DNA from: Leptolyngbya sp. NIES-3755
GTDB lineage: Bacteria > Cyanobacteriota > Cyanobacteriia > Leptolyngbyales > Leptolyngbyaceae
Assembly: GCA_001548435.1 (NCBI GenBank)
Contig: AP017308.1
Span: 1,993,030-2,057,029 of the forward strand
Direction: 5' to 3'
Length of the DNA: 64,000 nt
The notes below the pieces were generated by a model. It was not told where the DNA came from. It ran no database searches and saw nothing but the letters and a program-made list of their open reading frames with translations. Numbering within the stretch: position 1 is the stretch's first letter; every line of letters starts with the position of its first letter. A program made the position numbers and the translations under genes. Below, piece by piece: positions 21,689 to 51,574 of the stretch.

Positions 21689-22825
21689 TCACTTCGATAC
21701 CGACTGAACCGCTTGATATAAACCCTGAGCAAAATGACTCGGAGAAAACTTTTGAATATGCGCCAAAGCTGCGTTTCCCATGATTTTGACGCGTGCTTCA
21801 TCCGCGCTAATCTGAGTCATTAACTGCTGCATCTGTTCGACCCGATCTGGGTCAAATCCCCATCCCGTCACTCCTTCAATCACTAAGTCCTCAAAACATC
21901 CACAGCGATTGGAAACCAAAACAGGTAGACCTGCTGCCATTGCTTCATTGACAACCAATCCCCATTGTTCTTGATAGCTAGCGTGGATAAAACAATGGGC
22001 ATGAGCAAAATAAGGCATCAATTCATCCTGTTGAAGAAAGCCTGGTAAATGAATGCGATCGCTCAGTCCCAACTCATCGATCTGCTGCTCAAGTTGAGGT
22101 CGCAATTCGCCATCTCCACATAAAACAAGATCCCAGGGGTTTGCTGCTTGCTGAACGTAAGCGGCATAAGCCGTAATTAAATTAGGTAAGTTCTTTTTCT
22201 CAATGAATCGGTTGATCGATAAGAAAAAAGGAGCCTTGATCGGATTCGGCAACGATCGCAACCGATCGGGATGAAACACGTCATTGCCGACCACGTTATA
22301 CCCGGTAAAGATCACGTCACTGGGCATCTTAAGTTTCAGCAAATATCGTTTCTGGGGCTGTCCTCCCACTAATGCTGCTTGATAGTAATTGACCAAGTGC
22401 TGCTTGATTTGCTCTTTCAAGCCTTGGCGAGGAGCATCATCTTCTTTAGAAGCTGATAAAAGAATGGCAGGCTTGCGGTGCCAACGGCTCCAACCTAATG
22501 CGGCTAACATTCCAGGCTGAAAATATCCTGCGATCGCGACGACATCTGGATTAACTTTCGATAAGACACTGCAAACAGAAGGGACTAGTCGGCTGACTTT
22601 TACAGATTGGAGCGGTTGATCTTGAATCACCGTCACAAACGGACAGTCGGATTGTTCAACTGTGGCTTCCCAGGCATAATCGGCATCGGCGCGAGCGAGT
22701 TCAATTCCAACACACTGCATTCCAGATTCTGTACATAACGCATGAAACCGATTGACTCTCGCGAAATGGTAAGGACCATAGCTTGAGAAGAGAATCGCGA
22801 TTTTTAATTGTTCTTGCATCTTCAC
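21689..22825 (-). CDS. Glycosyltransferase family 4
   Basis: The protein has 378 residues. The start MKMQEQLKIAILFSSYGPYHFARV gives the first Rossmann strand; the donor domain contains FLSINRFIEKKNLP, VLCGDGELR, HASYQEQWGLVVNEAMAAGLPV and SNRCGC. Its ATG overlaps the stop of the upstream polymerase-like gene by 4 bases (22822-22825), and the next gene begins 9 bases downstream, so it belongs to a tight operon. No membrane span is seen. Donor unknown. Confidence 0.9.
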   Translation of the reverse strand: MKMQEQLKIAILFSSYGPYHFARVNRFHALCTESGMQCVGIELARADADYAWEATVEQSDCPFVTVIQDQPLQSVKVSRLVPSVCSVLSKVNPDVVAIAGYFQPGMLAALGWSRWHRKPAILLSASKEDDAPRQGLKEQIKQHLVNYYQAALVGGQPQKRYLLKLKMPSDVIFTGYNVVGNDVFHPDRLRSLPNPIKAPFFLSINRFIEKKNLPNLITAYAAYVQQAANPWDLVLCGDGELRPQLEQQIDELGLSDRIHLPGFLQQDELMPYFAHAHCFIHASYQEQWGLVVNEAMAAGLPVLVSNRCGCFEDLVIEGVTGWGFDPDRVEQMQQLMTQISADEARVKIMGNAALAHIQKFSPSHFAQGLYQAVQSVSK

Positions 22826-24096
22826 AATCGAGGAACATAGTTGAGTTTAGAAGTAGGAACCTTGCGACGGGCATAAAGCGCTACACCTAAAACGAAGATA
22901 GTGTAGAAGACAAAATCTGAGAGACAGGTTCCAGTCCCATGCGTTACCGCCTTCATCGAGCCAGAGAGAAAGGTAATATAAAGCACCTGACTCAGAATAG
23001 AATCATGCCTAACTGCTGAGACCCAAAGCGTTTTGATAAGAAGACCAAGCACAACAAAGACTAAGCAACCAAAATAATCAAATTCTCGGAACGTATCAGC
23101 AATTCCTGTAGGCACTAAGCCTGGATTCGGAACGTAATTATAAAGCGCTCTTAGGTCAAGCTCTTGTAGTCTGAGCATTAAGCCTTCTTTTAAATCTGAA
23201 CCCAATAGCTGTGCTGGAATAAAGCGAAAGACCAGAATATTCCAGTAGCCTGTGCCGTAACCGTACTGTTGAGTTTTAATAGTTGCATCAATCTGTAATG
23301 CAGCATATTCAAGTTCTAGATCACTTGCGTTGCCGACTACATTTTTGAGATTTTCAATCGGCTTTAAATTCCAAAGCTGATCCCAATTGCCCGATGAAGC
23401 CACTGAGCGGTACTGACCAATCAGCGGAATGGCGAGTAGGGCAAAAATCACGGCTGCGATCGCTAAGGGTCGCGGCACCGTCCATCGTTTGCGGAAAAAT
23501 AATGCCAGTCCGATTGTGAGTAGGAACGTTGCGATCGTCTCACGTCGTCCGAAAGCAATGATGCGATAAACCGGAATCACACAAGCGAAAAGAGTCGCAG
23601 CGATATTCGTAAAATTAGGACGCTTTAAGGTGAGAAGGAGAAGAATCGCCAACCCAGGAACAGATAAGTGAGAAAAAGTAGAGTAAATGGTACGAAGCCC
23701 AGTGAGTTGCCCGCGTGCATTGAGGGTGAGTTCGGTCGCTAAGGCGAGTCTTGAGAAAAAGAAGCCAAGAACTGCTAACAATAGCCCTCCCTGAAAAAGC
23801 TTCTTTTCGTTTGTCGGAAAGCTTAATGCTTTTACAACCTTGGCAGAGGTGGGTAAAGCATAACTGAGCAAGCACATCAGTAAGCAGAGCGCTGACATGA
23901 GTAGTGCTCTTTCCAGGACTTTTGGGCTGGGGAGAATCGGGTTGAGAATTAGTGAAATTCCCTGGGGCACAAGGAATGCTGCAAAGATGCCCGCCATTAC
24001 AAAAGGAAATTGATAGATCCGGGATGGACGATCGACGCTCCACCCGATCCCAGCAATACAGAGAAGAATAATGACTGCAAGATAAATTGTTGACAT
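22822..24096 (-). CDS. O-antigen polymerase/ligase-like membrane protein
   Basis: The 424-residue protein has about 10-12 predicted membrane segments. A long loop between about 240 and 340 lies outside the membrane and contains YGYGTGYWNIL and PTGIADTFREFDYFG. The layout fits Wzy polymerases or WaaL-like ligases: many spans, a large periplasmic loop, and Arg and Glu residues in the loops (FGRRETIATFL). Wzy joins repeat units on the periplasmic side after a Wzx flippase; no Wzx is seen in this window, so its partner is unclear. It shares a 4-base overlap with the GT4 gene. Confidence 0.72.
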   Translation of the reverse strand: MSTIYLAVIILLCIAGIGWSVDRPSRIYQFPFVMAGIFAAFLVPQGISLILNPILPSPKVLERALLMSALCLLMCLLSYALPTSAKVVKALSFPTNEKKLFQGGLLLAVLGFFFSRLALATELTLNARGQLTGLRTIYSTFSHLSVPGLAILLLLTLKRPNFTNIAATLFACVIPVYRIIAFGRRETIATFLLTIGLALFFRKRWTVPRPLAIAAVIFALLAIPLIGQYRSVASSGNWDQLWNLKPIENLKNVVGNASDLELEYAALQIDATIKTQQYGYGTGYWNILVFRFIPAQLLGSDLKEGLMLRLQELDLRALYNYVPNPGLVPTGIADTFREFDYFGCLVFVVLGLLIKTLWVSAVRHDSILSQVLYITFLSGSMKAVTHGTGTCLSDFVFYTIFVLGVALYARRKVPTSKLNYVPRL

Positions 24097-26527: not shown

Positions 26528-27634
26528 TTAAACCTGACTAGAATCCGTCATCTGCCGTACACACTCAATAAACCGTTTCTCTGCATCGACAGGACGCTGC
26601 GGCAGATCAGGCATTTCAAAAGATTGCAACAATAAAGCCGCTAACTCTGGCAAGGTGTCATAGCAATGAATACCAGAGAAACAGTATGCACTTCTGGCGG
26701 CGACACTATTTGCAATCAGTGGAACCCCTGCAATCAGCAATTCAGGAATCCGGGTCAACGCACCTGCCGCAGCCTTTTGATGAACTAAAGCAACGGTCGC
26801 ATGAGTTAAGAACTGATTTAATTCTTCTGGGGTCACAGCCCCGTGAACAACAAAGTCATCGTGTTTGCAATAGGGTTGGAGCAACTGAGTTTGATAGCCA
26901 ACAATATCTACTGTGAACGCTTGCTGTTCTCGTAGGTGATGTAGCCATTGAATCTGCTCGACCATGCCTTGAAAAGTAGGAATATTACCAGCACTGCCTA
27001 AAATCAACAAGTTTTTTTTCGGTGATGTTTTGCGAAGTGTTCTCACTTCTAACAGCCGTTCTACGATCGACGCTGGAGGGTAATACGGCAAAAAGTCTGC
27101 ATTGATACCTCTGAGTTTTAGAAGCCACTGTTCCTCACGCGAAATACAAAAGACCACTTGTGCTGCCCGTAGAGACTCGATTTCTTGGTCAAAATTTTGA
27201 TGAAAGTGCTGCGGAGGAAGAACAAAGCAGTCCAGATTATGAGGGACAGCAATCACCTTAAATCCGCGTTGTTTGGCAATATAAGGCGCAGTAGAATGCT
27301 TGGTTGTTTCCCAGATCAGGACTTTGCTGCCGTTGTGCTGCTTGATGGCTTCACTGTAAATTTGACTTTGAAAACCGAACTTAACGATTTCAGCAGGAGG
27401 TGTGATTCTGCTGAGTGAGTGTTTCACCACAAATGGCAGCGTTTTATAATTCAATAGCGCTTTGAATCCTGCCTGATACCGTTCGATCTGAGTGTTGAAT
27501 CTTGGCTTCTCCATCACGGCAATCTTCAGATTAGCTTGCTCTAGCAGTTCAAAGAGTTGACTTGTGCGGTGATCGCCGCCATGTCCATTGATCCCTGCGG
27601 TGTAGAAAGCGTCTATCAGAACGGTCTGGGTCAT
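26528..27634 (-). CDS. Glycosyltransferase family 4-like
   Basis: The protein has 368 residues in a GT-B layout, with ILGSAGNIPTFQGMVEQI and FLTHATVALVHQKAAAGALTR in the C-terminal domain and IAVPHNLDCF in the first domain. The retaining EX7E pair is less clear than in the neighbours: RIPELLIAGVPLIANSV has only one obvious acidic residue. It therefore belongs to a divergent branch, perhaps one that binds but transfers slowly, or uses another residue. It is co-directional with its neighbours, with gaps of 27 and 26 bases. Confidence 0.75.
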   Translation of the reverse strand: MTQTVLIDAFYTAGINGHGGDHRTSQLFELLEQANLKIAVMEKPRFNTQIERYQAGFKALLNYKTLPFVVKHSLSRITPPAEIVKFGFQSQIYSEAIKQHNGSKVLIWETTKHSTAPYIAKQRGFKVIAVPHNLDCFVLPPQHFHQNFDQEIESLRAAQVVFCISREEQWLLKLRGINADFLPYYPPASIVERLLEVRTLRKTSPKKNLLILGSAGNIPTFQGMVEQIQWLHHLREQQAFTVDIVGYQTQLLQPYCKHDDFVVHGAVTPEELNQFLTHATVALVHQKAAAGALTRIPELLIAGVPLIANSVAARSAYCFSGIHCYDTLPELAALLLQSFEMPDLPQRPVDAEKRFIECVRQMTDSSQV

Positions 27635-30246: not shown

Positions 30247-31536
30247 TTACGAATAGAGTTGCTGCAAGAGTGCATCGACGGTTCGCTGTAAGGAGTTGCC
30301 ATCTAGACGGTATGTAAATTCGCGCTCTAAGTCGAAATGAGCGGAGTTTGAAGCAGGGCAAGGTTCAAAGAGTGCAGCGTGTACTGCTTGTTTGAGAGCT
30401 TCTGGAGCAGATAGATAAACGGTTTTATAGCTGCCATATTCTTCTAGATGGTGATAAGCACTCGCAGGACCAGACGCATCGACATCTACTGCAATTACTT
30501 TTTTATTCATTAACAATGCTTCTTCTGCCACTGTTGAGGCACGAGTTACCAACACATCCGACAGGTGAAGCAGACCATAAACATCAAGCTGCGTGTGTTG
30601 AGGTTCGATAATACAAATCGAGTGAGATTGTTTGAGCGATTCTGGAATCGATGCTCGATAGAGGTTTGGATCTTTCTGGTCGCCGGGGTGCATTTTGATC
30701 ACCAGACAGACTTGTGAGAAATCGAGATTTTCATAGAGATACTGCATATAGGCAGTGTAGAGTTCGGCTTCGTTGGGTCGATCGCGATATTCGGTATGTA
30801 AACAAGTCGCCAGCAGAATCACTTTCTTCTGACAGACCTCAGACCAGAATGCAGGCGAGAACTGTTTCAACGCCTCTAGCACTTGATGACGATCGATGTT
30901 GAGAATGCGATCGTGCAGATGATTGCCGACAAGCTGGATTCGCTCTGATGGCACTTCATACTGATGAATCAATTCACGATAAACGCGCTCTCCCCAGACT
31001 AAGAGGCGCTCTGAAGTCGTTGAAGCCAGTCCTTGCACAGAATCTTGTCGCGTTCCTCCATGTTGAATCGAGGCGGTTTTCACACCGAATTGCTTTAATG
31101 TTTCTGCCGCATCGACTCCACGGGCATGAGCGGTGTAGAAGAACCGATGATCCAAGCAAAACAATCCAAGCGTTTGCTCAGGATGAAGGCAGGGCATGAG
31201 AATATCACTCAGTTGCTCTTTAACTTGGCAACCTGCGTCTCTGAGTTGCTGTTTTAACTGAGGATTGAGCGTACTGGGGATCACCGCCGTAACCTTGAGA
31301 GTAGGCTTTTCCAACAATTTGAATAATACAGGCACTAACACTCGCTCATCAGTTGGCGTACAGATTAAAGCGCGGATTTCGGACGTGCGAGCTTTCCAGA
31401 ACTGCGATCGCACAATGAGCAGATTGATCACCAAGGAGACTCGATCCCGAAAACTCAGCCTTGATTTGAGTGGATAGTCCCGCACGAAGACGATCGACTC
31501 AAACCCCGACAAAATCCAATTCAGAACTGACTTCAT
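30247..31536 (-). CDS. GT-B glycosyl- or glycerophosphotransferase-like protein
   Basis: The protein has 429 residues. The C-terminal half contains SIQHGGTRQD (about 165), IKMHPGDQKDP, and TRASTVAEEALLMNKKVIAVD, the pattern seen in CDP-glycerol/KpsC-KpsS-like capsule transferases, with a conserved His-Pro and a Ser/Thr-Glu-Glu site. Such enzymes often use CMP- or CDP-linked donors. The N-terminal part is not typical. Because the CMP-Kdo genes lie about 1-8 kb upstream, this is one of two candidates for a Kdo transferase (the other is at 45638). The assignment is inference. Confidence 0.65.
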   Translation of the reverse strand: MKSVLNWILSGFESIVFVRDYPLKSRLSFRDRVSLVINLLIVRSQFWKARTSEIRALICTPTDERVLVPVLFKLLEKPTLKVTAVIPSTLNPQLKQQLRDAGCQVKEQLSDILMPCLHPEQTLGLFCLDHRFFYTAHARGVDAAETLKQFGVKTASIQHGGTRQDSVQGLASTTSERLLVWGERVYRELIHQYEVPSERIQLVGNHLHDRILNIDRHQVLEALKQFSPAFWSEVCQKKVILLATCLHTEYRDRPNEAELYTAYMQYLYENLDFSQVCLVIKMHPGDQKDPNLYRASIPESLKQSHSICIIEPQHTQLDVYGLLHLSDVLVTRASTVAEEALLMNKKVIAVDVDASGPASAYHHLEEYGSYKTVYLSAPEALKQAVHAALFEPCPASNSAHFDLEREFTYRLDGNSLQRTVDALLQQLYS

Positions 31537-31548
31537 AGAATTCTAAGC

Positions 31549-32496
31549 TTAGTTTGCGATCGCTTGCTTGCGATATCGGAGGATAGCCAGAGCAGATTTC
31601 GCCGTTCTTCGACCCAGAAAAGCGGTCGCTGCCCAAGTTCGCCAAAGATAGTTTCTTAGCTGTCCAAAACTGCCCTTCATGTTCGGTAAATTCTTGATTC
31701 GCTTGGAAATCACGCCGCGATCGTAAGCTTCTTCAATCTCTTTGGGTTGAACAAATCCTTGGTCGATCGCTTCGAGATAAAACTTCTCCCAAAAGGCACT
31801 GACCGCATTGTGATGAAATAACCAAGGCTGGCTGGTTAAATCGGTGAAATGGACGATTTTAGAGCTAGGCGTTAAGACATCTAGATGATTCCAAGCGCTC
31901 GGTAAATCCACGATCGAGGTTGGAGCTTGTTGCAAAAACGGCTTGCCCAAGAACATTAAATCGGGATATGAGAACTGATCTTGATTCAAGCCTTGAACGA
32001 TCGCATCAATCTTCCACGACTGTAATTTTGAGCAATCTAGCAGCATCACACTCGTGAGATAGTACGCTTCTGGGGACGCGATCAACTGCTGAAGAAAGTT
32101 ATTCACATAATCCTTGCCGCTTTCCGCTGCTTTGACATTGACGGCTGCAACGGCTCGATCGTCTAGCGTGTAGTTCCACAGATTCACGATATCTTCGAGC
32201 GAAATTTGGTCGGAGTCACAATAGATGGCTTTGCCCTCAAAGTTGCACCATTCGGGAATCGCATAGCGAGCGAGCGAAAATGCGGTTGCCCCTTTGAGTC
32301 GATCGCTGACGATCGCGGGTAATTGTTTCGTTTCCCCGTTGTGCATCGTCACCGAACCCGTCTCCCCGTTGATAATGTTGATTTCCAGGGGTGAGTTTGT
32401 GTGTTTGAGCAATGAATAGACAAACACTTTTTCTTCGACGCGGTTGCGGCAACTTGACCCGATGAAAATCCGAACGGGTTGAGTCGTCGTTTGCAT
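31549..32496 (-). CDS. Glycosyltransferase family 8-like, paralogue of the gene at 50782
   Basis: The protein has 315 residues from ATG 32496, which is preferred over ATG 32505 because AGGAG lies 9 bases upstream of it, immediately before the first ATG. The GT8 DxD motif is CDSDQISLEDI, followed by a SWNHLDVL-like acceptor segment and KIVHFTDLTSQPW with the conserved His. The protein at 50782-51570 shares the F(L)Y/YIDSDT frame and the KLIHYTNLYTQPW motif. Family 8 enzymes are retaining galactosyl- or glucosyltransferases; the donor cannot be inferred. Confidence 0.85.
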   Translation of the reverse strand: MQTTTQPVRIFIGSSCRNRVEEKVFVYSLLKHTNSPLEINIINGETGSVTMHNGETKQLPAIVSDRLKGATAFSLARYAIPEWCNFEGKAIYCDSDQISLEDIVNLWNYTLDDRAVAAVNVKAAESGKDYVNNFLQQLIASPEAYYLTSVMLLDCSKLQSWKIDAIVQGLNQDQFSYPDLMFLGKPFLQQAPTSIVDLPSAWNHLDVLTPSSKIVHFTDLTSQPWLFHHNAVSAFWEKFYLEAIDQGFVQPKEIEEAYDRGVISKRIKNLPNMKGSFGQLRNYLWRTWAATAFLGRRTAKSALAILRYRKQAIAN

Positions 32497-32508
32497 TCTA
32501 AACATCTC

Positions 32509-33021
32509 CTAATCTAGAGCTTGTACGGAGAGGAGTAAATCACATACTTCTCGAACGGCACCCTGACCACCTCGATGCCGCGTAATGTAAAGCGCGATCG
32601 CTTGATTGGCAGGCATGGCATCTGCCACCGTGATCGGACATCCCACTCGCTCAAGAATCGGCACGTCGATCAAGTCATCGCCCACATACGCAACTTCTGA
32701 CAGCGAGACATTCAACTGCTGACATAACTGCTCTAGCGTTTCTAGCTTGTTCTCGATCCCGGTAAACACCGAATCAATTCCAAGCCGTTTGGCTCGATGT
32801 AGAGTCGAGGCTGAAAAGCCCGCAGAAATGATCGCCACTTGAATCCCGGCAGTCATTAACAGCTTGATTCCAAGTCCATCTTTGACGTTGAACTTCTTCA
32901 GTTCTTCGCCTGTCTCGGTGTAGTAAAGTCCGCCATCGGTCATGACTCCATCGACATCGAGCGCGAGGAGTTTGACTTGGGCAAGACGGCTTCTGAGGTC
33001 GTCGGACAGGTCGTTAATCAT
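32509..33021 (-). CDS. kdsC: 3-deoxy-D-manno-octulosonate-8-phosphate phosphatase (KdsC-like HAD)
   Basis: The protein has 170 residues, the usual KdsC length. HAD motif I is [13 protein letters not shown] with nucleophile Asp22 and Asp24; motif III and IV parts are [10 protein letters not shown] and [12 protein letters not shown]. KdsC removes the phosphate from Kdo-8-P to give Kdo. Its ATG overlaps the TGA of kdsA by 4 bases (33018-33021). This pairing is what separates it from other HAD phosphatases and makes the assignment secure. Confidence 0.93.
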
Positions 33022-33857
33022 AGCGAGACCGAGGGAGCAACTTCGAGCGCATTCCGAATGCTGAGGACTTGTTTCAATAGATTTTCTAACTCTGCTAACG
33101 GCACCATATTCGGACCATCACTGAGCGCGATCGCAGGATTTTCGTGAACTTCCATGAATAGCGCATCCACTCCAATCGCCATCGCCGCACGAGTGAGGTA
33201 CGGAACAAAGTGCCGCTGTCCACCTGAAGAAGTGCCTTGTCCACCGGGCATCTGAACGCTGTGAGTCGCATCAAACACGACCGGATATCCCAGCGATCGC
33301 AGTTGAGGAAGCGATCGGAAATCTACCACTAGCGTGTTATAGCCAAAACTGGTTCCACGCTCCGTGACGAGAATTTTTTGGGTTCCCGCTTCTTCTAACT
33401 TCTGCACCACATTCTTCATGTCCCAGGGAGCGAGAAACTGTCCCTTTTTCACATTCACCGTTTTTCCGGTCGCTGCTGCTGCCACCAATAGATCCGTTTG
33501 ACGACAGAGAAATGCAGGAATCTGAAGCACATCGACCACCTCTGCCACCGGAGCCGCCTGATAGCTCTCGTGAATGTCCGTCAGCACAGGGACACCGATT
33601 TCCTGCTTGACTCTTTGCAGAATCGCCAACCCGGTTTCCATCGATTGTCCTCGGAATGACTCGATCGAGGTGCGATTCGCCTTATCAAACGACGATTTGA
33701 AGATAAACGAGATATTTAAGCGATCGCAGATTTTCCGAATCTCGGCTGCCATTTTTAAGGTGAACTCTTCAGATTCGATCACACAAGGACCACTGATCAG
33801 CGCGAGTGGCTGTTGATCCCCGATCGTAATCGTGTCTGTAACTTGTACTTGCTGCAT
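33018..33857 (-). CDS. kdsA: 3-deoxy-8-phosphooctulonate synthase (KdsA)
   Basis: The protein has 279 residues. It condenses phosphoenolpyruvate with arabinose-5-phosphate to form Kdo-8-P. Recognisable parts are [10 protein letters not shown] (PEP site), [43 protein letters not shown] and FDATHSVQ. The Cys in GPC is at about residue 22, but metal dependence cannot be judged by eye. It lies upstream of kdsC with a 4-base overlap, while the two remaining Kdo genes, kdsB and kdsD, are 2.5 kb upstream beyond an acylation pair. Both sets probably serve one product. Confidence 0.96.
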
Positions 33858-33904
33858 TTCGCCACTCCGGCTTGTGTTCGATTAATATCATTCGCAGAAC
33901 TATC

Positions 33905-33936
33905 ATCGCTCTGAGTCTATCTCATCGTAGAGCGAT
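33905..33936. other. 8-bp inverted repeat between the SGNH gene and kdsA
   Basis: ATCGCTCT (33905-33912) and AGAGCGAT (33929-33936) form a perfect stem with a 16-base loop in the 90-base gap between genes on the same strand. No T-run follows in either direction, so a rho-independent terminator is not supported. It could be a transcript processing or regulatory hairpin ahead of kdsA. HIP1-like GCGATCGC overlaps its right arm (33932-33939). Confidence 0.4.
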
Positions 33937-33947
33937 CGCTTCACCGA

Positions 33948-34895
33948 TCAGTTTCTAGCAACTTTCTGGGTCACTAAAGGGCGAAGCTGCTCCGCTAATT
34001 CTTCGGTTCTGAGCTTTTGCCCTTCTCTCGTGAGATGAAACGTGGTATCGCCAAACAAAGAAATATCCTCTTTCAAATTGAGCGTTTTTGGATTGTAGAC
34101 AACCGGGGCAATCTTCGAGAGCGATCCGATCACCTGGCGGAGTTGAGACTGTGTTTTTGGTTCACTCTTAGCGAGTTTCCAGGGAATGCCCAGAATTAGC
34201 TTTCCTTGCCGTTGTTCAACAAACTGCCGAAAGTGATCAATTTGCTGAAAAGAAGCATCTGATAGTTCAACGCTGGTTTCCCCAAAGGGCGGCTTGCCTG
34301 ACAGTGAATCGAGTGAATCCCCATTCTGATTCACATCGAACTGATACCAGGTCGGCTTTCTGCGGGTGAAGATCTCACTCCTGAGTGCAGCAACGACATC
34401 AAACAGTCTCGGAGACCCCACTAGGATGAGTCGATTCGCTACATTTTTCGGATTTTCTTGCTCTCCCTGCAAGAGATCAAATCGCTGACTTCTCAGCCCC
34501 ACCAGCGTCGCTAAAATTCCTGAATTCTCCTCTGGGGTATAACTGAGCAAATCATGTTCTGGAAAGAGCACAACAATGTCACCCGCTCGAATTTCGTTCT
34601 GAACGAGCTTGAAAATTCCGTCTAGTCCCAACCCTGCATGTAATCCCAGATTCACAACCGGAATGTTTAGCTTCTTTTGCAGGCGTTCTGCTTGTAAGCC
34701 AAAATGGGTCGAAGATCCGCCGACGAGCAGAATCCGTCTTGGTGCTTTAATTGCCTCAGCACGAGCAATCTTTTGGGTATAAATCGAATTCACCCAAGCG
34801 GGATCTTGGAAGTAATACAAATTAAACCAAGCCCCGATCGACCAAGCCGCTCCTGCGACCATCGCCCACGGCAGGACTCTGATTACGCCTTTCAT
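33948..34895 (-). CDS. SGNH-hydrolase-like partner of an MBOAT acyltransferase
   Basis: The protein has 315 residues starting at ATG 34895, supported by AAGGAG upstream. A single N-terminal hydrophobic segment (about 8-25) anchors it outside the membrane. GGSSTHFGL is the block-I serine motif of SGNH/GDSL-like enzymes, and TFHLTREGQ near residue 290 supplies the Asp/His-type block. AlgJ/AlgX- and DltD-like proteins with this layout work with MBOAT proteins to O-acylate exported polysaccharide. The neighbouring MBOAT gene ends 10 bases upstream. The acyl donor and sugar are inferred. Confidence 0.78.
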   Translation of the reverse strand: MKGVIRVLPWAMVAGAAWSIGAWFNLYYFQDPAWVNSIYTQKIARAEAIKAPRRILLVGGSSTHFGLQAERLQKKLNIPVVNLGLHAGLGLDGIFKLVQNEIRAGDIVVLFPEHDLLSYTPEENSGILATLVGLRSQRFDLLQGEQENPKNVANRLILVGSPRLFDVVAALRSEIFTRRKPTWYQFDVNQNGDSLDSLSGKPPFGETSVELSDASFQQIDHFRQFVEQRQGKLILGIPWKLAKSEPKTQSQLRQVIGSLSKIAPVVYNPKTLNLKEDISLFGDTTFHLTREGQKLRTEELAEQLRPLVTQKVARN

Positions 34896-34905
34896 CAAGT
34901 CTCCT

Positions 34906-36333
34906 TCAGAATGAGAAGTAAATGAACTTGGAAGATTCTTTCGCCGAAACGAGGATCAACAGAAACAGCAACAATCGAGCGATCGGCGAAGATAAAAACA
35001 ATTGATACCCATGCGGAAGCTTCCGAGCAACTGCCGTCCGTTCAAGGAACAGAAAGAGCACCGACAAGCAGACGATGACGATCAAAGCAGACCGCTGAAT
35101 CGGACTGACAATGACTTTGAGATTAGCCAAAGAATAAGCGGCTGGTGTGATCAGCGATCGTAATTTCATCATCATCCGGCTCATGTCGGTTTCCATGAAA
35201 AAGAACCAGCCAAAGGTGACAAGATTGAACGTGATCAACCAAGCAACCTGCTTAGAGAGTCGAATGACTTGACCGAAGGTGCGATGCAGGATGAGCAATA
35301 GCCCGTGATAGCCGCCCCACAGCACAAAGTTCCAGCCTGCCCCATGCCACAGTCCCGAAATCAAGAAGACGGTCAACAAATTTGCACTCGCCCACGGCAC
35401 TCTCGATCCGCCTAACGGGAAATAGATATAGTCGCGAAACCAAGTGCTGAGGGTAATATGCCAACGTCGCCAAAACTCCTGAATGTTTGTTGAAACGTAG
35501 GGAGAATTAAAGTTCAGCGTCAGTGAAACACCAAGTAACTGTGCCAAACCTAAAGCAATCAAACTGTAGCCTGCGAAGTCAAAATAGATTTGCAAGCCGA
35601 ATAAATAGGTTGAAAGCCAGATCGTCCAAGCATTCATCGCTTCTGAGACTTGAACATGCGTGGATAGATTGTCTGACAGCACCAGCTTCATGAACAAGCC
35701 GACAATGATCCAGCGCATCCCGATCGAGACATTCGCCATGGAAAACCGAAAGCGAAAGGATTGCATCTGAGGTAATAAGTCAGCCCGTCGTTCAATCGGT
35801 CCAGCAACGACTTGGGGAAAAAACGATGTGAAATTAACATAATCTACGAAGGTCAGCATTTTCTCATCGGTTGCTCTCATCGAATCCACCACAAAGGCAA
35901 CCATCTGGAATGTATAAAACGAGATCCCAGGAGGAATTTGAGACAAGCCTGAAAAGATGCCGTCTGACGGTCTGAAGCTTGCACTCGCGATCGAGCCACC
36001 CAAGATATCTCTAGCAATGAAGTCTAGATACTTGAAATACACCAGAATCAGCAGGTTGGTGAGAATGGTCACGGCTGCGATCGCAGTTCTACCCCAGCCT
36101 TTGGTTCGCTGTATCCAGTAAACCGCAAGATAGTTAAAAACAAGTTCTAGAACAAAGATCAGCGTACTTTCACGAGAAGCAGCATAGAAAATCGTCAACG
36201 AGAGACCCATTAATCCGATGCGATCGAGGGCATCGCTCCAAAGCTTTAGGTTTCGTCCGATCCAACGAACAAGCAGTAAGACAACACTACTGACAATCAA
36301 CGTCCACCAAAACGAAAAATCAGCAAAGTTCAT
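34906..36333 (-). CDS. MBOAT-family O-acyltransferase (AlgI/DltB-like)
   Basis: The 475-residue membrane protein has about 11-12 spans. MBOAT landmarks are SFYTFQMVAFVVD, PQVVAGPIERR, FWRRWHITLSTWFRDYIYFPLGG (given in two pieces around the Trp) and LISGLWHGAGWNFVLWGG, whose His is the catalytic-type residue. The family moves an acyl group across the inner membrane for transfer to a glycan by a periplasmic partner, here the SGNH-like protein encoded next. The position between kdsB and kdsA suggests O-acetylation of a Kdo-containing glycan. Confidence 0.92.
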   Translation of the reverse strand: MNFADFSFWWTLIVSSVVLLLVRWIGRNLKLWSDALDRIGLMGLSLTIFYAASRESTLIFVLELVFNYLAVYWIQRTKGWGRTAIAAVTILTNLLILVYFKYLDFIARDILGGSIASASFRPSDGIFSGLSQIPPGISFYTFQMVAFVVDSMRATDEKMLTFVDYVNFTSFFPQVVAGPIERRADLLPQMQSFRFRFSMANVSIGMRWIIVGLFMKLVLSDNLSTHVQVSEAMNAWTIWLSTYLFGLQIYFDFAGYSLIALGLAQLLGVSLTLNFNSPYVSTNIQEFWRRWHITLSTWFRDYIYFPLGGSRVPWASANLLTVFLISGLWHGAGWNFVLWGGYHGLLLILHRTFGQVIRLSKQVAWLITFNLVTFGWFFFMETDMSRMMMKLRSLITPAAYSLANLKVIVSPIQRSALIVIVCLSVLFLFLERTAVARKLPHGYQLFLSSPIARLLLFLLILVSAKESSKFIYFSF

Positions 36334-36359
36334 GAGTTGATCTGAAGATAAGTAGCGGG

Positions 36360-37094
36360 TTAGCCGTTGTCTGGTGTGATGAACGATTGAGCTTTGATCA
36401 AGTCTTCTGGAGTATTAATTTCGGGGACGGCAGCTTGAGTCCGACACACCCGAATCTGATATCCATGTTCAAGGACTCGGAGTTGTTCGAGCGCTTCACA
36501 GAGTTCGAGCGGGGTTGGAGTCAGACTGGCATAGTTCGCGAGAAAGTCACGTCGAAACGCATACAGCCCCAAATGGTGAAACACGGGAGCCGGGGCGGAA
36601 TTGCGATAGTAGGGAATCGGAGCACGAGAAAAATAAAGCGCTCGCTGATGTCGATCGCAGATGACTTTCACGACATTCGGATCAAGATACGCTGATTCTT
36701 CAGACAGTGGACAAGCGAGCGTCGTCATCTCTGGCTGTTCTCCGTCGAGATAGGGAGTCACCAATTCAGTCAACATCTCAGAAGTGACAAACGGTTGATC
36801 CCCCTGAACATTGACTACAACATCCATCTCTGGATATCGCTCTGCTACTTCAGCAACGCGATCGGTTCCGGTTTCGTGTGTGGAGCTTGTCATCTCAACG
36901 GAGCCACCGAAGCCCCTCACACAATCGGCAATTCTTTGATCATCGGTCGCGACGACGACTTGATCAAACACTGAGCATTGTTTCGCCGCTTCATACACCC
37001 ATTGCACCATGGGTCGATCGCCAATCGTCACGAGCGGTTTACCTGGAAAGCGTTGGGAACTATAGCGGGCGGGAATTACAGCAAGAATTTTCAA
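36360..37094 (-). CDS. kdsB: CMP-Kdo synthetase (KdsB)
   Basis: The protein has 244 residues. It begins ILAVIPARYSSQRFPGKPL, the nucleotide-binding motif of CMP-Kdo synthetases, and later shows VVVATDD, VNVQGDQPF and YFSRAPIPY. The reaction is CTP + Kdo to CMP-Kdo. The start is TTG 37094, whose bases overlap the kdsD stop as TTGA, and GGAG lies 9 bases upstream. A TTG start on a core pathway gene suggests low or coupled expression. CMP-Kdo is the donor for any Kdo transferase encoded in this locus. Confidence 0.96.
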   Translation of the reverse strand: MKILAVIPARYSSQRFPGKPLVTIGDRPMVQWVYEAAKQCSVFDQVVVATDDQRIADCVRGFGGSVEMTSSTHETGTDRVAEVAERYPEMDVVVNVQGDQPFVTSEMLTELVTPYLDGEQPEMTTLACPLSEESAYLDPNVVKVICDRHQRALYFSRAPIPYYRNSAPAPVFHHLGLYAFRRDFLANYASLTPTPLELCEALEQLRVLEHGYQIRVCRTQAAVPEINTPEDLIKAQSFITPDNG

Positions 37095-38092
37095 AGTAAA
37101 CCACTCCGTGCAATATCGTGAAGCCGAATCAATCCTAAACAGCGCTGCGATCGATCAATGACCGGAAGCACTGCGATTTGTGAGGAGCGATTCTCCATCA
37201 GTTGCAGGGCTTCATACGCAAGTTGATCCGGCAGAACTGTGATCGGGTGATCTGTCATGATCGATCGAGCAGTGAGCGAGGCTAACTCCGCAGGGTGCAA
37301 TTTACTAAACACGCGGCGTAAATCCCCATCGGTGATTAGTCCTAGCAGGTTGCCCTCTGCATCAACGACATTAACCGCACCCAGTCCCCCCTGAGTAATG
37401 GCGCTGATAATTTCTAGCCAGCTTGCTTCCGGTGAGATCATCGGATTGTCGATCGCGTTGTGCATCAAATCGCTCACCGTCAGGGTTAATCGCTTGCCTA
37501 AGCGTCCTGCGGGGTGATTCAGCGCAAAATGTTCTGGGGTCAACTCTTTGAGCTGCATCAAGGTCATTGCCAACGCATCCCCGATCGCGAGTGCGACAGT
37601 CGTACTGGTGGTTGGAGCTAGATTTAAGGGACAAGCTTCTCGATCGACGGAAGCATCTAACACCACATCCGCCTGCTTTGCCAGAGTCGAATCGAGATTA
37701 CCGAGAATTGCCACAACCGGGACATGACGGTGCTTCAGGTGTGGCACCATTTCGATCAGTTCCGCAGTTTCGCCACTATTACTCAAGATCACGGCGACAT
37801 CCGTTGTGCCCACAATCCCTAAATCACCGTGTAGGGCATCACAAGGATGGAGACAAACCGACATGATGGCAATGCTGTTGAGCGTAGCCGAGATTTTCTG
37901 AGCGACAATTCCTGATTTCCCCACTCCCGACAGAATGACTTTGCCCCGGCAGTGAATCAGGAGATCGATCGCGGCTTCCACCGCTTCCGCGTTCAAATTT
38001 TGGGCAGATTTTGCGATCGCGCTTGCTTCGAGTTGCAGCAAATGAGCGACTTGAGAAAAGTGCGTCGAATGAGGAGGAACTGTAGTTTGCAT
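37091..38092 (-). CDS. kdsD: Arabinose-5-phosphate isomerase (KdsD/KpsF) with CBS domains
   Basis: The protein has 333 residues. The SIS domain (about 40-180) shows LSGVGKSGIVAQK and LSNSGETAELIEM, with HPAGRLG at 193-199. Two CBS domains fill about 205-330. This arrangement is standard for KdsD/KpsF/GutQ, which convert ribulose-5-phosphate to arabinose-5-phosphate, the KdsA substrate. CBS domains usually sense nucleotides or CMP-Kdo. The stop codon overlaps the TTG of kdsB, so these two are translated together. Confidence 0.95.
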   Translation of the reverse strand: MQTTVPPHSTHFSQVAHLLQLEASAIAKSAQNLNAEAVEAAIDLLIHCRGKVILSGVGKSGIVAQKISATLNSIAIMSVCLHPCDALHGDLGIVGTTDVAVILSNSGETAELIEMVPHLKHRHVPVVAILGNLDSTLAKQADVVLDASVDREACPLNLAPTTSTTVALAIGDALAMTLMQLKELTPEHFALNHPAGRLGKRLTLTVSDLMHNAIDNPMISPEASWLEIISAITQGGLGAVNVVDAEGNLLGLITDGDLRRVFSKLHPAELASLTARSIMTDHPITVLPDQLAYEALQLMENRSSQIAVLPVIDRSQRCLGLIRLHDIARSGLL

Positions 38093-40808: not shown

Positions 40809-42083
40809 TTAGACTTGCCATTCTCTAGGCTGATAAAAATTGCACTGAGTCATTAGCTCATCACTATCAACACAGAACTTAAACGTCTCTACCATGTCAT
40901 AGACAAAGCCAGGGGGTCTACTAATCGTAAGCTTGGCAATGTATGAACCAATGCGGAGACCACAGTAAGGCAAATAAAGTCGAAGCTCATTCATTCCAGG
41001 AGTCACTTTTAACGATCGCTGATCTCGGTAGCAACTCAGATCTAGCAACCAATCTCCCTCGCCGACTTGGTCGCGAATCAAGACATCTAAGCTCACCTCT
41101 GTTTCGACATCAGACCGACATTGAATGCAGAGATAACCGCTCTGTCCACTCACCAGCGCATTGATGAGTTTTCCCTGCTCGTTCTTGAGACTCACCTCGG
41201 TGATATCGATGCCTGCACTTTGAGCTTTCGGCTTCTCTGGAATTTGCAAATAGCCGTTCGAGTCCTCATGAGAAGTCATGAACAATTCTTTCTCGTACTG
41301 ATTCATGACCGAGGCGGCATCGCCCTTTGCAATCAGGCAGCCCTTCTTCAAGTACAGCGCTGAATCACACATCGAAAGAATCGTCTGTGGGTTGTGAGAC
41401 ACCAGAATAAAAGTGGTTCCCTTTTCTCGTAAGGCTGCCAAACGGCGATAGCATTTCATCCGAAACAAAATGTCGCCAACCGAAAGCACTTCATCGAGCA
41501 GCAAGATATCGGGTTCTGAAAAAATGGCGCAGGCAAATCCCAATCGAGCAGACATTCCAGAACTGTAACTTTGAATCGGGGTATCGATCGCATCGCCCAA
41601 CTCGGCAAATTCCACCACTTGATCGAATCGTTGCCGAATCTCTTTTTGCGACACACCCAAGATGGACATATTCGCGTAAATGTTCTCGCGTCCGGTCAGC
41701 ACTGGACTAAACCCAGCTCCCAACGCAATCAGCGGTGCAATTCGTCCCCGCACTTCGACTTCACCCGTGTCTGGCTTAATCAAGCCGCTGATAATTCGCA
41801 GCAGCGTCGATTTACCTCCTCCATTTCGACCGATTAGCCCGATCGCTTCACCCCGCTTCACCTCGAAACTAATGTCTTGTAGTGCCCAAAACTCTTTCGA
41901 TCGCAGATGACGATTTTCTCGCCGGAGTCCGGTTAGCTCAGCCGCGATGTCTTGAACTCCGTAGATCATCGATCGCTTCAGATCCCGGCAAAACTTTTTG
42001 GAGATGTGACGGACAGATAGAATCACCTCGCCCTCTGGCTCTGACGAGAGGTTAGAGCGAGGCTGCTCGATACTTTTTACCAT
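40809..42083 (-). CDS. Wzt-type polysaccharide ABC transporter ATPase (block 1)
   Basis: The protein has 424 residues from ATG 42083; the longer frame to 42206 overlaps the permease gene. Walker A is GRNGGGKST (85-93), with Gly in place of the usual Ala; the signature is SYSSGM (172-177) and Walker B is ILLLDE (Asp197-Glu198). Residues about 290-424 form a C-terminal beta domain as in Wzt, where it reads the terminal modification of the polymer. It pairs with the permease at 42127-43020 and exports an undecaprenyl-linked glycan across the inner membrane. Confidence 0.92.
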   Translation of the reverse strand: MVKSIEQPRSNLSSEPEGEVILSVRHISKKFCRDLKRSMIYGVQDIAAELTGLRRENRHLRSKEFWALQDISFEVKRGEAIGLIGRNGGGKSTLLRIISGLIKPDTGEVEVRGRIAPLIALGAGFSPVLTGRENIYANMSILGVSQKEIRQRFDQVVEFAELGDAIDTPIQSYSSGMSARLGFACAIFSEPDILLLDEVLSVGDILFRMKCYRRLAALREKGTTFILVSHNPQTILSMCDSALYLKKGCLIAKGDAASVMNQYEKELFMTSHEDSNGYLQIPEKPKAQSAGIDITEVSLKNEQGKLINALVSGQSGYLCIQCRSDVETEVSLDVLIRDQVGEGDWLLDLSCYRDQRSLKVTPGMNELRLYLPYCGLRIGSYIAKLTISRPPGFVYDMVETFKFCVDSDELMTQCNFYQPREWQV

Positions 42084-42126
42084 TGGAAACCCACCATAAC
42101 TGGCACTTGTACAAAAATGCAACCGC

Positions 42127-43020
42127 TCAAGAACTAATGCGTTCAACGGCATAGGGAATCGCAAGGCGATAGATAATCCAAGCGACCAGCAAGCCGACGA
42201 TCGCAATCAAGCTGGCAATCCAAAATCCTTGAGGGTCAGAAATAATCCCCGTCGTCGCTAACTCTCGCGTCGTTACCAGCAACGGAGTGACTGGATTCAA
42301 GCGCACGATCGTACCAAAAACGCCACCGCTCGGAACCGGATACACAACCGGGGTTAGAAACAGCCAGAATCCGGTAATCAGGGTGAGTGCAAGCGAAAGA
42401 TCTTGAAACAACACGCCAATCGGTGTCAGCAATAGCCCGAAAAATGTTCCAAGAATGACTAAATGAATCAGCGCGACAGGCGCAATCAGAACGCTCCAAG
42501 TCACTGGAATTTTGAACCAGAGAAACAGTCCGATAATCAACACCAGTTTAATTCCGAAGTTGAAGAATACTTCTCCAAGCTTGGCGATAATGAGTGCTTC
42601 TCGTGGAAAGCTGATCTTTGCCATCATTGCTTTGGCGCTTCCAACAGCTTGAATCGGACCATTCAGCGCTTCGACAAACGTTTGCCACAGCGTCATGCTA
42701 AACATAATGTAAGCGGGATAAGGTAAGTTCACCTCGCCCACGTTCACGACTCCGCTGGCTCGTGCTAAGGTAAACCCGATCGCCATCACCACGGGCGGGA
42801 GCACTGCCCAAGCGATTCCTAACGCGGATTGTCGATATTTTGCGCTAATGTCACGGATGCAGAGTTGCCAAGCGAGTTCTCGACTACTGAGCAAATCCCG
42901 CTTCATCTCTTGAAGCAACTGCAATGGATGACGGAGTTTGCTTTCGGGGGTGTAGCGAATGCTCGATCGAGAAGACGGGTAGGGATTCGACCCAGACCGA
43001 TGGCGTTTGGACTGATTCAT
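42127..43020 (-). CDS. Wzm-type polysaccharide ABC transporter permease (block 1)
   Basis: The protein has 297 residues with a long cytoplasmic N-terminus (about 60 residues, Ser/Arg/His-rich) and six membrane spans, as in ABC-2 permeases. RYSQSALGIAWAVLPPV-like sequence (seen as KYRQSALGIAWAVLPP) and LFLTPVVYPVP mark the family. It is the first gene of the unit on the minus strand, 64 bases downstream of the small zinc-type protein gene. The extended basic N-terminus is longer than in the block-2 permease. Confidence 0.92.
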   Translation of the reverse strand: MNQSKRHRSGSNPYPSSRSSIRYTPESKLRHPLQLLQEMKRDLLSSRELAWQLCIRDISAKYRQSALGIAWAVLPPVVMAIGFTLARASGVVNVGEVNLPYPAYIMFSMTLWQTFVEALNGPIQAVGSAKAMMAKISFPREALIIAKLGEVFFNFGIKLVLIIGLFLWFKIPVTWSVLIAPVALIHLVILGTFFGLLLTPIGVLFQDLSLALTLITGFWLFLTPVVYPVPSGGVFGTIVRLNPVTPLLVTTRELATTGIISDPQGFWIASLIAIVGLLVAWIIYRLAIPYAVERISS

Positions 43021-45637: not shown

Positions 45638-46804
45638 TCAAAGTTGTTCGATCGCATGATGCAAGGTTTCCTCATGCTCTAATCGGGCTGTGATAAAGTC
45701 TGGATCAAAGTAGCGCGTCGTTAGTTCTTGCCCGAAACCAATAAAGCTTGGAACATCGAAAAGCAGCTTTAACGATAAACAGGCAGAACTCACCGCGAAC
45801 ACACGAACATCATCGTTCTGGAAAGCTTTTAGAAAGAAGATCTCAAACGGTAGAAAGAATAAGTTCGGATCAGTGAGTAGAACAATTGTTTGATAGAGAT
45901 CAGATAGATTTTCTTTTAATCGATGAATCTTATTGAGATCGTCTCTGGGATGGGGCTTGATTACTAAAACACTATTGGGTAAGATTTCGTGCGAACTCAG
46001 AAACTCCCGATAAGCTTGGATTTCATTATTTTGAGATAAGCGATCGCCTTCTGAAAAATTCGAGGTTAAAAGAATCGAAACTGGAGATTGTGCAATTGCG
46101 GTTTGAACTTCTCTAACTTGAGCCTCATCGACAAAACAAGTGAACTGTTGAAACACGGTGAGTAAATGATTGGGACCGAGTTTTACGATCGACATCGGTG
46201 GTGTTTCGCCAAAAATGTCTGGTAGCACAAAGTAACCCACTTCAAACGGCATGGAATAGAGCTTAGTTTTTAGTTTTAACCGCTCTCGAATTCGATGCCA
46301 GAGCGACCTCGCTCTCCACCAAGTCCAATCAAACCATTGATCAGGGGTAGGGGGCGGCGTAAACGGACGACGAACAACTGCCGAATTTTCAGAGAAATAC
46401 AACCCAACTCCGTCCCCGTAGCAGATTCGGCTTGCAGTTGGATAAGCATTGATCAAAAGTTGATTCGTGAATTGCCAATTGCGACATAGGTAAATTTCAT
46501 CCGCTTGATCCAACCCAATCCATTGATGAACTGTGCTGTAGATTCGATGCGGTGGAGTGGAATCTAATTGATGTCCGATCGAGTGAAGCTGCTCTGGTGT
46601 GAGATAGACGATCGAGATCCAACTGCAAACCGATTCTGCCATTTGCTGAATGAATTTTGCGAACTCATCATGCTGTTGGTCAGGCGCATACAATTCGTAG
46701 ATGACAAGATAGTTCTCATCAGACTGCGATCGCGTTTTGTAGAACAGTGTTGAGAGTGCTGCAATTAGCTGAATGCTGCCTTGACAAGTAATGATACGCT
46801 TCAT
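45638..46804 (-). CDS. Polysialyltransferase-like glycosyltransferase
   Basis: The protein has 388 residues. The bacterial polysialyltransferase motifs are visible: ICYGDGVGLY with Asp131 in the D/E-D/E-G region, IKPHPRDD with His285-Pro286, and AVSSACLS with Ser339-Ser340. This family uses CMP-activated acidic sugars such as CMP-sialic acid. No sialic acid genes are seen here, whereas a full CMP-Kdo pathway is present in the same locus, so a Kdo transferase role is plausible. The start overlaps the stop of the GT39 gene by 4 bases. Confidence 0.72.
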   Translation of the reverse strand: MKRIITCQGSIQLIAALSTLFYKTRSQSDENYLVIYELYAPDQQHDEFAKFIQQMAESVCSWISIVYLTPEQLHSIGHQLDSTPPHRIYSTVHQWIGLDQADEIYLCRNWQFTNQLLINAYPTASRICYGDGVGLYFSENSAVVRRPFTPPPTPDQWFDWTWWRARSLWHRIRERLKLKTKLYSMPFEVGYFVLPDIFGETPPMSIVKLGPNHLLTVFQQFTCFVDEAQVREVQTAIAQSPVSILLTSNFSEGDRLSQNNEIQAYREFLSSHEILPNSVLVIKPHPRDDLNKIHRLKENLSDLYQTIVLLTDPNLFFLPFEIFFLKAFQNDDVRVFAVSSACLSLKLLFDVPSFIGFGQELTTRYFDPDFITARLEHEETLHHAIEQL

Positions 46805-51570: not shown

Positions 51571-51574
51571 GATA

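What the first reader, a model, noticed from the sequence alone, without database searches (positions are those of the whole stretch)
32509..38092. Complete CMP-Kdo pathway interrupted by an O-acylation pair
Seen: kdsD, kdsB, MBOAT, SGNH-like, kdsA and kdsC lie together on one strand, with 4-base overlaps at both Kdo pairs. Known: these four Kdo enzymes make CMP-Kdo, and MBOAT/SGNH pairs O-acylate exported glycans. Chemical work on some cyanobacterial LPS reports little or no Kdo, so a dedicated set is notable. Inference: Kdo, perhaps O-acetylated, is part of a surface glycan here rather than of a lipid A core. No waaA or other lipid A gene is in the window.
Basis: partly seen in the sequence, partly recalled or inferred. 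Interest (0 to 1): 0.62.

Follow-up and report, generated by a model that had tools for sequence, protein, structure and literature searches.

The report
Kdo sugar operon without lipid-A transferase
A cyanobacterium carries a full set of genes for the sugar Kdo inside a surface-sugar export locus but lacks the enzyme that normally attaches Kdo to lipid A, and the neighbouring genes point to an uncharacterised kind of Kdo-attaching enzyme that it shares with the model cyanobacterium Synechococcus elongatus.

Summary
In detail: kdsD-kdsB-[MBOAT-SGNH-like]-kdsA-kdsC lie on the minus strand at 38092-32509, with 4-base overlaps at both Kdo pairs. The host (same genus code as Leptolyngbya boryana) has LpxC but no match for WaaA, LpxK or KpsC/KpsS, and KdsB is its only CMP-sugar synthetase over the Pfam cut-off. 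So Kdo probably goes somewhere other than the classical lipid A core, by another transferase. The operon lies in a glycan locus with two Wzm/Wzt exporters. Two unassigned glycosyltransferases are candidates: a GT-B protein two genes after kdsC (30247-31536, family A1) and a polysialyltransferase-like protein (45638-46804, family A2). In 388 cyanobacterial genomes A1 occurs in 8, all with kds genes; strong A2 hits occur in 13, all KdsA+; A3, a distant homologue of A1, occurs in 9, all KdsA+. A1 and A3 never co-occur and can fill the same slot. A1 also occurs in the Synechococcus elongatus group, whose LPS is reported to hold about 1.5% Kdo. Most likely Kdo is added to an ABC-exported polysaccharide, perhaps as its cap. 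That Kdo itself is O-acetylated is not shown. Activity of A1 is inferred; known Kdo-transferase families GT99, GT137 and GT140 were not searched for.

The parts
37091..38092 (-). kdsD, arabinose-5-phosphate isomerase (SIS + 2 CBS)
   Evidence: TIGR00393 over cut-off, PF01380, PF00571
36360..37094 (-). kdsB, CMP-Kdo synthetase; the only PF02348 match over the cut-off in the genome
   Evidence: TIGR00466 over cut-off; solved KdsB structures match; genome search
34906..36333 (-). MBOAT O-acyltransferase (DltB/AlgI type), inserted between kdsB and kdsA
   Evidence: PF03062 over cut-off; TIGR04091 182 bits, under its cut-off of 375
33948..34898 (-). partner of the MBOAT, SGNH-like by recalled motifs only
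   Evidence: no family hit; pairs with MBOAT in relatives
33018..33857 (-). kdsA, Kdo-8-phosphate synthase
   Evidence: TIGR01362 over cut-off; solved KdsA structures match
32509..33021 (-). kdsC, Kdo-8-phosphate phosphatase
   Evidence: TIGR01670 over cut-off
31549..32505 (-). GT8-family glycosyltransferase, partner of the A1 or A3 gene in relatives
   Evidence: PF01501; its 11 best matches are the GT8 genes beside A3 or A1 in 11 relative loci, 44-51% identity
30247..31536 (-). family A1: GT-B protein, candidate CMP-Kdo-dependent transferase
   Evidence: alignment (invariant QHGGT and KxHP); linkage; model pLDDT 84.8
45638..46804 (-). family A2: polysialyltransferase-like protein, second candidate CMP-Kdo transferase
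   Evidence: PF07388 58 bits against cut-off 23.3; alignment; distribution
40809..42206 (-). Wzt-like ABC ATPase with C-terminal extension (exporter 1)
   Evidence: PF00005; aligns to Wzt 8dku, query 104-422 on chain 33-344; no PF14524 match
42127..43020 (-). Wzm-like ABC permease (exporter 1)
   Evidence: PF01061
51575..52837 (-). Wzt with Wzt_C domain (exporter 2)
   Evidence: PF00005 and PF14524
52838..53674 (-). Wzm (exporter 2)
   Evidence: PF01061
13031..14071 (-). WecA/TagO-type family (PF00953), possible starter of a lipid-carrier-linked glycan
   Evidence: PF00953 107 bits; role inferred

Best explanation
The segment is a complete CMP-Kdo operon that serves an ABC-transporter-dependent surface polysaccharide, not the classical Kdo-lipid A core. 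KdsD, KdsA, KdsC and KdsB make CMP-Kdo from ribulose-5-phosphate (enzymes assigned by family membership). In the cytoplasm a dedicated glycosyltransferase, most likely the GT-B protein 30247-31536 together with the GT8 enzyme beside it, adds Kdo to the glycan (inferred). The polysialyltransferase-like protein 45638-46804 is a second candidate, perhaps for another Kdo linkage. The finished chain is recognised and flipped by Wzm/Wzt; Kdo may be its non-reducing cap, as in Klebsiella O4 and O12 (analogy). The MBOAT/SGNH-like pair would then O-acylate some residue of the exported glycan (inferred, target unknown).
For: No WaaA match in the own genome (99.99% complete), with E. coli, Caulobacter and Bacteroides as ringing controls; no LpxK; no KpsC/KpsS; LpxC present. 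KdsB is the only PF02348 match over the cut-off. The two 'NeuB' hits (43.7 and 33.2 bits) look like DAHP synthases: true NeuB scores 283-294 bits, one hit overlaps a sub-cut-off KdsA-model hit, and a DAHP synthase in L118 gives the same weak pattern. A1 occurs in 8 of 388 genomes, 7 of them KdsA+ (G515's KdsA is a fragment under the cut-off); the eighth, G373, has kdsC 15 bases upstream of A1 at a contig end. A kds gene lies within two genes of A1 in 10 of 11 distinct loci; the 11th starts at a contig edge. Strong A2 hits: 13 of 388, all KdsA+; two weak hits are in KdsA- genomes. A3: 9 of 388, all KdsA+. A1 and A3 never share a genome, are homologous (hhalign probability 97.9, E 6e-13) and can fill the same place after kdsC-GT8. 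A1, A2 and A3 each have an invariant K-x-H-P, a CMP-binding motif of sialyl- and retaining Kdo-transferases (PMC12887879, passages).
Against: No activity is shown for any A1, A2 or A3 member. The best fold matches of the A1 model are UDP-GlcNAc 2-epimerases (Z about 23), not Kdo transferases. The QXXXD nucleophile motif of known retaining Kdo transferases is not conserved in A1. The families were picked because they lie near kds genes, so only their absence from KdsA- genomes is a test, and no control family was searched the same way. Six of 26 KdsA+ genomes outside family f19 have none of A1-A3. Homologues of the Kdo transferase KrkA (GT140) are reported in cyanobacteria (PMC12887879, passage) and were not searched for here. 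Nothing shows which exporter carries the Kdo glycan.
Confidence: 0.55

Rival explanations
1. The polysialyltransferase-like protein 45638-46804 (A2) is the only Kdo transferase; A1 uses another donor or is a sugar 2-epimerase-like enzyme that happens to sit near kdsC.
For: A2 belongs to a sialyltransferase-type family and is found in all 8 genomes listed for the genus. Lst, a sialyltransferase, can add Kdo to gonococcal LOS (PMC8092323, title, start of abstract and section headings). A1 folds most like UDP-GlcNAc 2-epimerases.
Against: A1 occurs without A2 in G215, G403, G409, G373 and G515, and follows kdsC in the four of them where the neighbour is visible. In the partial alignment to epimerase 4neq the HRxEN and DSGG stretches (roles recalled) are not kept in A1: the His position is H or Q. 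A1 alternates with its homologue A3.
Confidence: 0.18
2. Kdo does link the polysaccharide to lipid A, but an unrelated enzyme (A1, A2 or A3) has replaced WaaA, so this is a core sugar after all.
For: LpxC is present and Anacystis LPS is reported to contain Kdo (PMC4515613, passages); the passages do not say where in the LPS it sits.
Against: The operon lies in a variable glycan locus with different candidate enzymes in close relatives. LpxK is missing too.
Confidence: 0.12
3. A relative of a known Kdo transferase family (GT99, GT137 or GT140) elsewhere in the genome, not A1 or A2, adds the Kdo.
For: KrkA (GT140) homologues are reported in cyanobacteria (PMC12887879, passage). I had no family model for these and ran no search for them.
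Against: Two glycan-locus proteins without a Pfam family (26528-27634, 22822-24096) have no convincing sequence match among solved structures, which is weak evidence. A1 and A2 lie closer and follow the kds genes across families.
Confidence: 0.08
4. Kdo forms a linker between a capsule and a phospholipid, as in group 2 capsules.
For: ABC exporter plus CMP-Kdo genes resemble a group 2 locus; A3 in relatives is weakly KpsC/KpsS-like.
Against: No KpsC/KpsS match in the own genome. Wzt 2 has a Wzt_C domain, typical of O-antigen exporters (recalled).
Confidence: 0.05
5. The operon is a leftover without function.
For: Patchy distribution.
Against: All six frames are intact with tight spacing, and all 8 genomes listed for the genus have KdsA.
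Confidence: 0.02

Closest known systems
Klebsiella O12 (WbbB, GT99) and O4 (ORF7, GT137) Kdo-capped O-polysaccharides
   Same: CMP-Kdo used by an ABC-exported O-polysaccharide; Wzt with a carbohydrate-binding part (PMC11231755, passages)
   Different: A1 and A2 were not matched to WbbB or ORF7 (no search by these families was made; the A1 and A2 profiles found neither in the PDB); the host has no WaaA match
WaaA (GT30), lipid A Kdo transferase
   Same: Uses CMP-Kdo (recalled)
   Different: No match in the own genome; over the cut-off in only 5 of 53 KdsA+ Cyanobacteriia, with 3 more sub-cut-off hits
KpsC/KpsS (GT107 and relatives, PF05159)
   Same: (K/R)XHP motif; A3 of relatives has a weak PF05159 match
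   Different: No PF05159 match in the own genome; A1 has no conserved QXXXD
Sialyltransferases of the GT38/GT52 kind (PF07388)
   Same: A2 scores 58 bits against a cut-off of 23.3 and keeps YGD, KPHP and SSA stretches
   Different: No NeuA- or NeuB-type gene was found in the own genome, so the donor is most likely CMP-Kdo (inference)
UDP-GlcNAc 2-epimerases
   Same: Fold of A1 (Z about 23, 4.4 A, 335 residues)
   Different: Epimerase stretches not conserved in a partial alignment; K-x-H-P instead

Membership tests
CMP-Kdo pathway | KdsD, KdsA, KdsC and KdsB all present | tested here: met
   NCBIfam subfamily or equivalog models over cut-off for all four
Kdo-lipid A (WaaA) pathway | WaaA (PF04413) in the genome | tested here: not met
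   0 matches in G000, controls ring
Kdo-lipid A (WaaA) pathway | LpxK (PF02606) in the genome | tested here: not met
   0 matches in G000, controls ring
Group 2 capsule | KpsC/KpsS (PF05159) | tested here: not met
   0 matches in G000, E. coli control rings
ABC-dependent O-polysaccharide locus | Wzm/Wzt pair among glycosyltransferases, Wzt with carbohydrate-binding part | tested here: met
   two pairs; Wzt 2 has PF14524; Wzt 1 lacks a PF14524 match but aligns with 8dku into its C-terminal part
A1 as a retaining Kdo transferase (GT99/107/140 kind) | (K/R)XHP motif | tested here: met
   K281-x-H283-P284 invariant in 6 of 6 rows and 7 of 7 rows
A1 as a retaining Kdo transferase (GT99/107/140 kind) | conserved QXXXD with nucleophilic Asp | tested here: not met
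   QHGGT is invariant but has Thr in the Asp place and lies over 100 residues before KxHP; about 34 residues before KxHP, where KrkA has the motif, A1 has (H/Q)xEY, a literal QXXXD only in the two S. elongatus-group rows
A1 as a retaining Kdo transferase (GT99/107/140 kind) | closest fold is WbbB, KpsC or KrkA | tested here: inconclusive
   GT-B fold; listed rows are epimerases and other GT-B enzymes; an unlisted family is not excluded
A1 as a Kdo transferase of any kind | transfer of Kdo from CMP-Kdo | not testable with these tools
   needs an enzyme assay
A2 as a GT38/GT52-like transferase | PF07388 over the curated cut-off | tested here: met
   58.3 bits, cut-off 23.3
O-acetylated Kdo | acylation genes consistently linked to kds genes | tested here: not met
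   MBOAT relatives in 8 of 32 fetched loci, the pair at the kdsB/kdsA junction only in G000 and G454; also a MBOAT near A1 in L119 and L121
Own genome carries GT99, GT137 or GT140 | a relative of WbbB, ORF7 or KrkA | not tested
   no search by these families was made

The most novel reading that the evidence does not exclude
A1 and its alternate A3 found a new CMP-Kdo-dependent glycosyltransferase group on an epimerase-like GT-B scaffold, exchanged as alternative cassettes beside the kds genes of cyanobacterial O-antigen loci, and A1 (or A2) accounts for the Kdo reported in the LPS of Anacystis (Synechococcus elongatus), which has no WaaA.
Probability: 0.4. Interest if true: 0.72.

Novelty: new variant of a known kind. 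Interest (0 to 1): 0.6.

Why it matters
Reviews state that cyanobacterial LPS lacks Kdo (PMC4515613, start of abstract and passages; PMC4390846, passage), yet about one in seven of the cyanobacterial genomes drawn has KdsA (53 of 388) and only 5 of those 53 have WaaA over the cut-off. [quoted passage not shown] This locus names concrete candidates and ties them to a tractable strain group, S. elongatus, where old chemistry reported Kdo, so the question can be settled by gene deletion and sugar analysis.

Tried and rejected
QXXXD reading of the QHG stretch: I first took QHGLD in A3 as the Kdo-transferase nucleophile motif. It lies over 100 residues before KxHP, whereas in KrkA Gln189 lies 36 before Ser225 of its S-x-H-P (passages), so I dropped it. 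A literal QXXXD at the right distance exists only in the two S. elongatus-group A1 rows.

NF046086 'BFO_1060 family glycosyltransferase' matches A1 and A3 far under its cut-off. I looked for a known function of BFO_1060; the term occurs in none of the 15 papers listed nor in the two Tannerella papers searched for it, so it adds nothing.

A structure of A2 from its single sequence failed (pLDDT 38.6); no fold search was made with it. Known Kdo-transferase folds are not among the 50 rows shown for A1.

Exchange of the operon within the genus: a KdsA+KdsC tree rejects the 8 Leptolyngbya-genus rows as one clade (p-AU 2e-65), but with two same-family rows added it is not rejected (0.177), and the A1-linked operons as one clade are not rejected either (0.246). 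So transfer between families is not shown. That tree has 22 rows: I left out 9 loci (seven f19 rows, G248, the long-branched G299) and a second contig of G454, and G316 dropped out because no kdsC was found.

A1 was not found in the phage or plasmid collections. Paper searches for Kdo transfer in cyanobacteria listed no characterised cyanobacterial Kdo transferase in this open-access library. A search for Leptolyngbya LPS chemistry listed nothing relevant among its 8 rows.

Full report
Observation. The four Kdo enzymes score over curated cut-offs, KdsA and KdsB match solved enzymes of that name, and both 4-base overlaps are real. The SGNH-like label is only a motif guess, since no library recognises the protein.

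Surroundings. All 58 frames of 150 aa or more were scanned with Pfam. Upstream lie a Wzm-like permease and a Wzt-like ATPase (42127-43020, 40809-42206), a NodZ-like protein under Pfam's cut-off and a GT. Downstream lie a GT8, the GT-B protein 30247-31536, a hexapeptide-repeat transferase-like protein, further GT1/GT2 proteins and, at 13031-14071, a WecA/TagO-type protein (PF00953). A second Wzm/Wzt pair and a polysialyltransferase-like protein lie at 45638-53674. Wzt 2 has a Wzt_C domain; Wzt 1 has none by Pfam but aligns with a Wzt of known structure into its C-terminal part, the part that recognises a capped chain in Aquifex (PMC9445017, abstract and passages).

Genome test. The window lies in a 6.76 Mb, 99.99% complete genome. 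It has LpxC and no match for WaaA, LpxK or KpsC/KpsS. One PF02348 match is over the cut-off, the KdsB of this operon; two more are below it (E 8e-4). Two NeuB-model hits are formally over that model's cut-off (43.7 and 33.2 bits) but look like DAHP synthases: true NeuB scores 283-294 bits in two relatives, and a DAHP synthase in L118 gives the same weak pattern. So CMP-Kdo is the only CMP-ulosonate that I can find a source for.

Distribution. KdsA occurs in 53 of 388 Cyanobacteriia (52 over cut-off), among them all 8 genomes listed for the window's genus. Of these 53, WaaA is over cut-off in 5, all in family f19, and three more f19 genomes have sub-cut-off hits. Strong KpsC/KpsS matches occur in 12 f19 genomes and weak ones in 11 others, nine of which are the A3 proteins below. 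LpxK is over cut-off in 0 of 26 KdsA+ genomes outside f19 (one sub-cut-off hit, G384) and in 3 of 3 WaaA+ f19 genomes tested. Synechococcus elongatus, a named control, rings for KdsA, PF02348 and LpxC, but not for WaaA, PF05159, LpxK or NeuB.

Candidate transferases. I fetched up to 40 kb around kdsA from 31 other KdsA+ genomes of the 53 and grouped their proteins with those of the window. Three families stand out: A1 (window 30247-31536), A2 (window 45638-46804) and A3 (absent from the window's genome). Over the 388 genomes: A1 in 8; A2 in 15, of which 13 strong (E at most 3e-134) and 2 weak (7e-20 and 3e-12); A3 in 9. Every strong hit lies in a KdsA+ genome except A1 in G373, where kdsC lies 15 bases upstream at a contig end; in G515 the KdsA match is a fragment under the cut-off. 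The two weak A2 hits are in KdsA- genomes. Hypergeometric values are 4e-6 (A1, G373 counted against), 1e-12 (A2 strong) and 9e-9 (A3) by genome, and 8e-5, 8e-5 and 6e-4 by genus with G373's genus counted as KdsA+. The families were chosen for lying near kds genes, so these figures only measure their absence elsewhere; related genomes are not independent, and no control family was run. A1 and A3 never co-occur; A1 shares 3 genomes with A2, and A2 shares 6 with A3. 20 of 26 KdsA+ genomes outside f19 have at least one of the three; G101, G172, G248, G299, G312 and G316 have none. Of 27 f19 genomes, 15 have WaaA or strong KpsC/KpsS and 12 have neither.

Same slot. kdsC-GT8-A1 is seen in the window and in both S. 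elongatus-group genomes, and kdsC-GT8-A3 in G326 and G391; in other genomes of the window's genus and family with A3 the GT8-A3 pair stands before kdsD. In G215, G403, G409, G373 and named Baaleninema simplex PCC 7105 (L121), A1 follows kdsC directly; in Leptolyngbyaceae MO_188.B28 (L119) it follows kdsA by 6 bases. A1 and A3 are homologues (hhalign 97.9%, E 6e-13). A2 shares with A1 only a 59-column stretch around KxHP (42.5%).

What A1 is. Its model (7 sequences, mean pLDDT 84.8, pTM 0.79) is a GT-B fold nearest to UDP-GlcNAc 2-epimerases (Z 23.1, 4.4 A, 335 residues), with TagF, a CDP-glycerol polymerase (donor recalled), at Z 19.4. It keeps K-x-H-P, which binds CMP in sialyl- and retaining Kdo transferases (PMC12887879, passages), and does not keep the epimerase stretches in the partial alignment to 4neq. 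It lacks a conserved QXXXD. Glu249 of the (H/Q)xEY stretch is invariant in 6 of 6 and 7 of 7 rows and is a candidate catalytic residue (inference).

Link to chemistry. A review lists Kdo at about 1.5% in Anacystis nidulans LPS; in the same table Anabaena flos-aquae has 12.5, Phormidium 0.5 and Agmenellum 0.13, and three others are 'absent' (PMC4515613, passages and table; the flos-aquae figure may be a column slip, as its text calls Kdo absent in Anabaena). Anacystis nidulans is the old name of S. elongatus (recalled). G036 is S. elongatus PCC 11801 by its plasmids, and G261 shares its genus code. Both carry kds genes with GT8, A1 and A2, and no WaaA, LpxK or KpsC/KpsS match.

The acylation pair. 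MBOAT plus the SGNH-like protein stands between kdsB and kdsA in G000; in G454 the pair stands before kdsA, cut by a contig end, with one more gene between. In G391, G403 and G440 a related pair stands elsewhere in the cluster; G101, G384 and G409 have a MBOAT without a recognised partner, and L119 and L121 have one near A1. Kdo O-acetylation is possible but not shown.

Verdict. The new element is a set of concrete, partly alternating candidate Kdo transferases. The chemistry of the glycan, the donor of A1, the role of Kdo as cap, side branch or repeat sugar, and the absence of GT99, GT137 or GT140 relatives remain untested.

Noticed in passing
L118 5998-14350 (Geitlerinema sp. BBD 1991): A1 sits beside a KdsB-like synthetase, a ribulose-phosphate epimerase joined to KdsD-type CBS domains, a DAHP synthase over its model cut-off and a HAD phosphatase, with a KdsA-KdsC fusion downstream. 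This could be a pathway for a CMP-activated seven-carbon ulosonate.
   Followed up: partly
G239, G442, G510 (family f19): WaaA lies within about 2 kb of LpxK in these small-genome Cyanobacteriia, against the published view that cyanobacteria have only four lipid A genes (PMC3087551, passage).
   Followed up: no
12 KdsA+ f19 genomes such as G189, G221, G485: KdsA without WaaA over the cut-off, strong KpsC/KpsS or A1-A3: their Kdo transferase is unknown.
   Followed up: no
L090 16560-17840 and L067 1342-2589: A family with a sub-cut-off match to DUF6716 'putative glycosyltransferase' (one member scanned) lies next to the kds operon in G299 and G312, a possible further Kdo-transferase candidate.
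   Followed up: no
kdsB/kdsA junction in the fetched loci: In 7 of 20 loci with both genes (window included; G248, with kdsC between and opposite strands, not counted) other frames stand between kdsB and kdsA: the MBOAT pair, GT-like genes, a 556-aa family, a 100-aa and a reverse-strand frame.
   Followed up: partly
window 46801-48318: 505-aa protein without a Pfam match that reads like a polytopic membrane glycosyltransferase; a relative lies next to A2 in most genomes of the genus.
   Followed up: no
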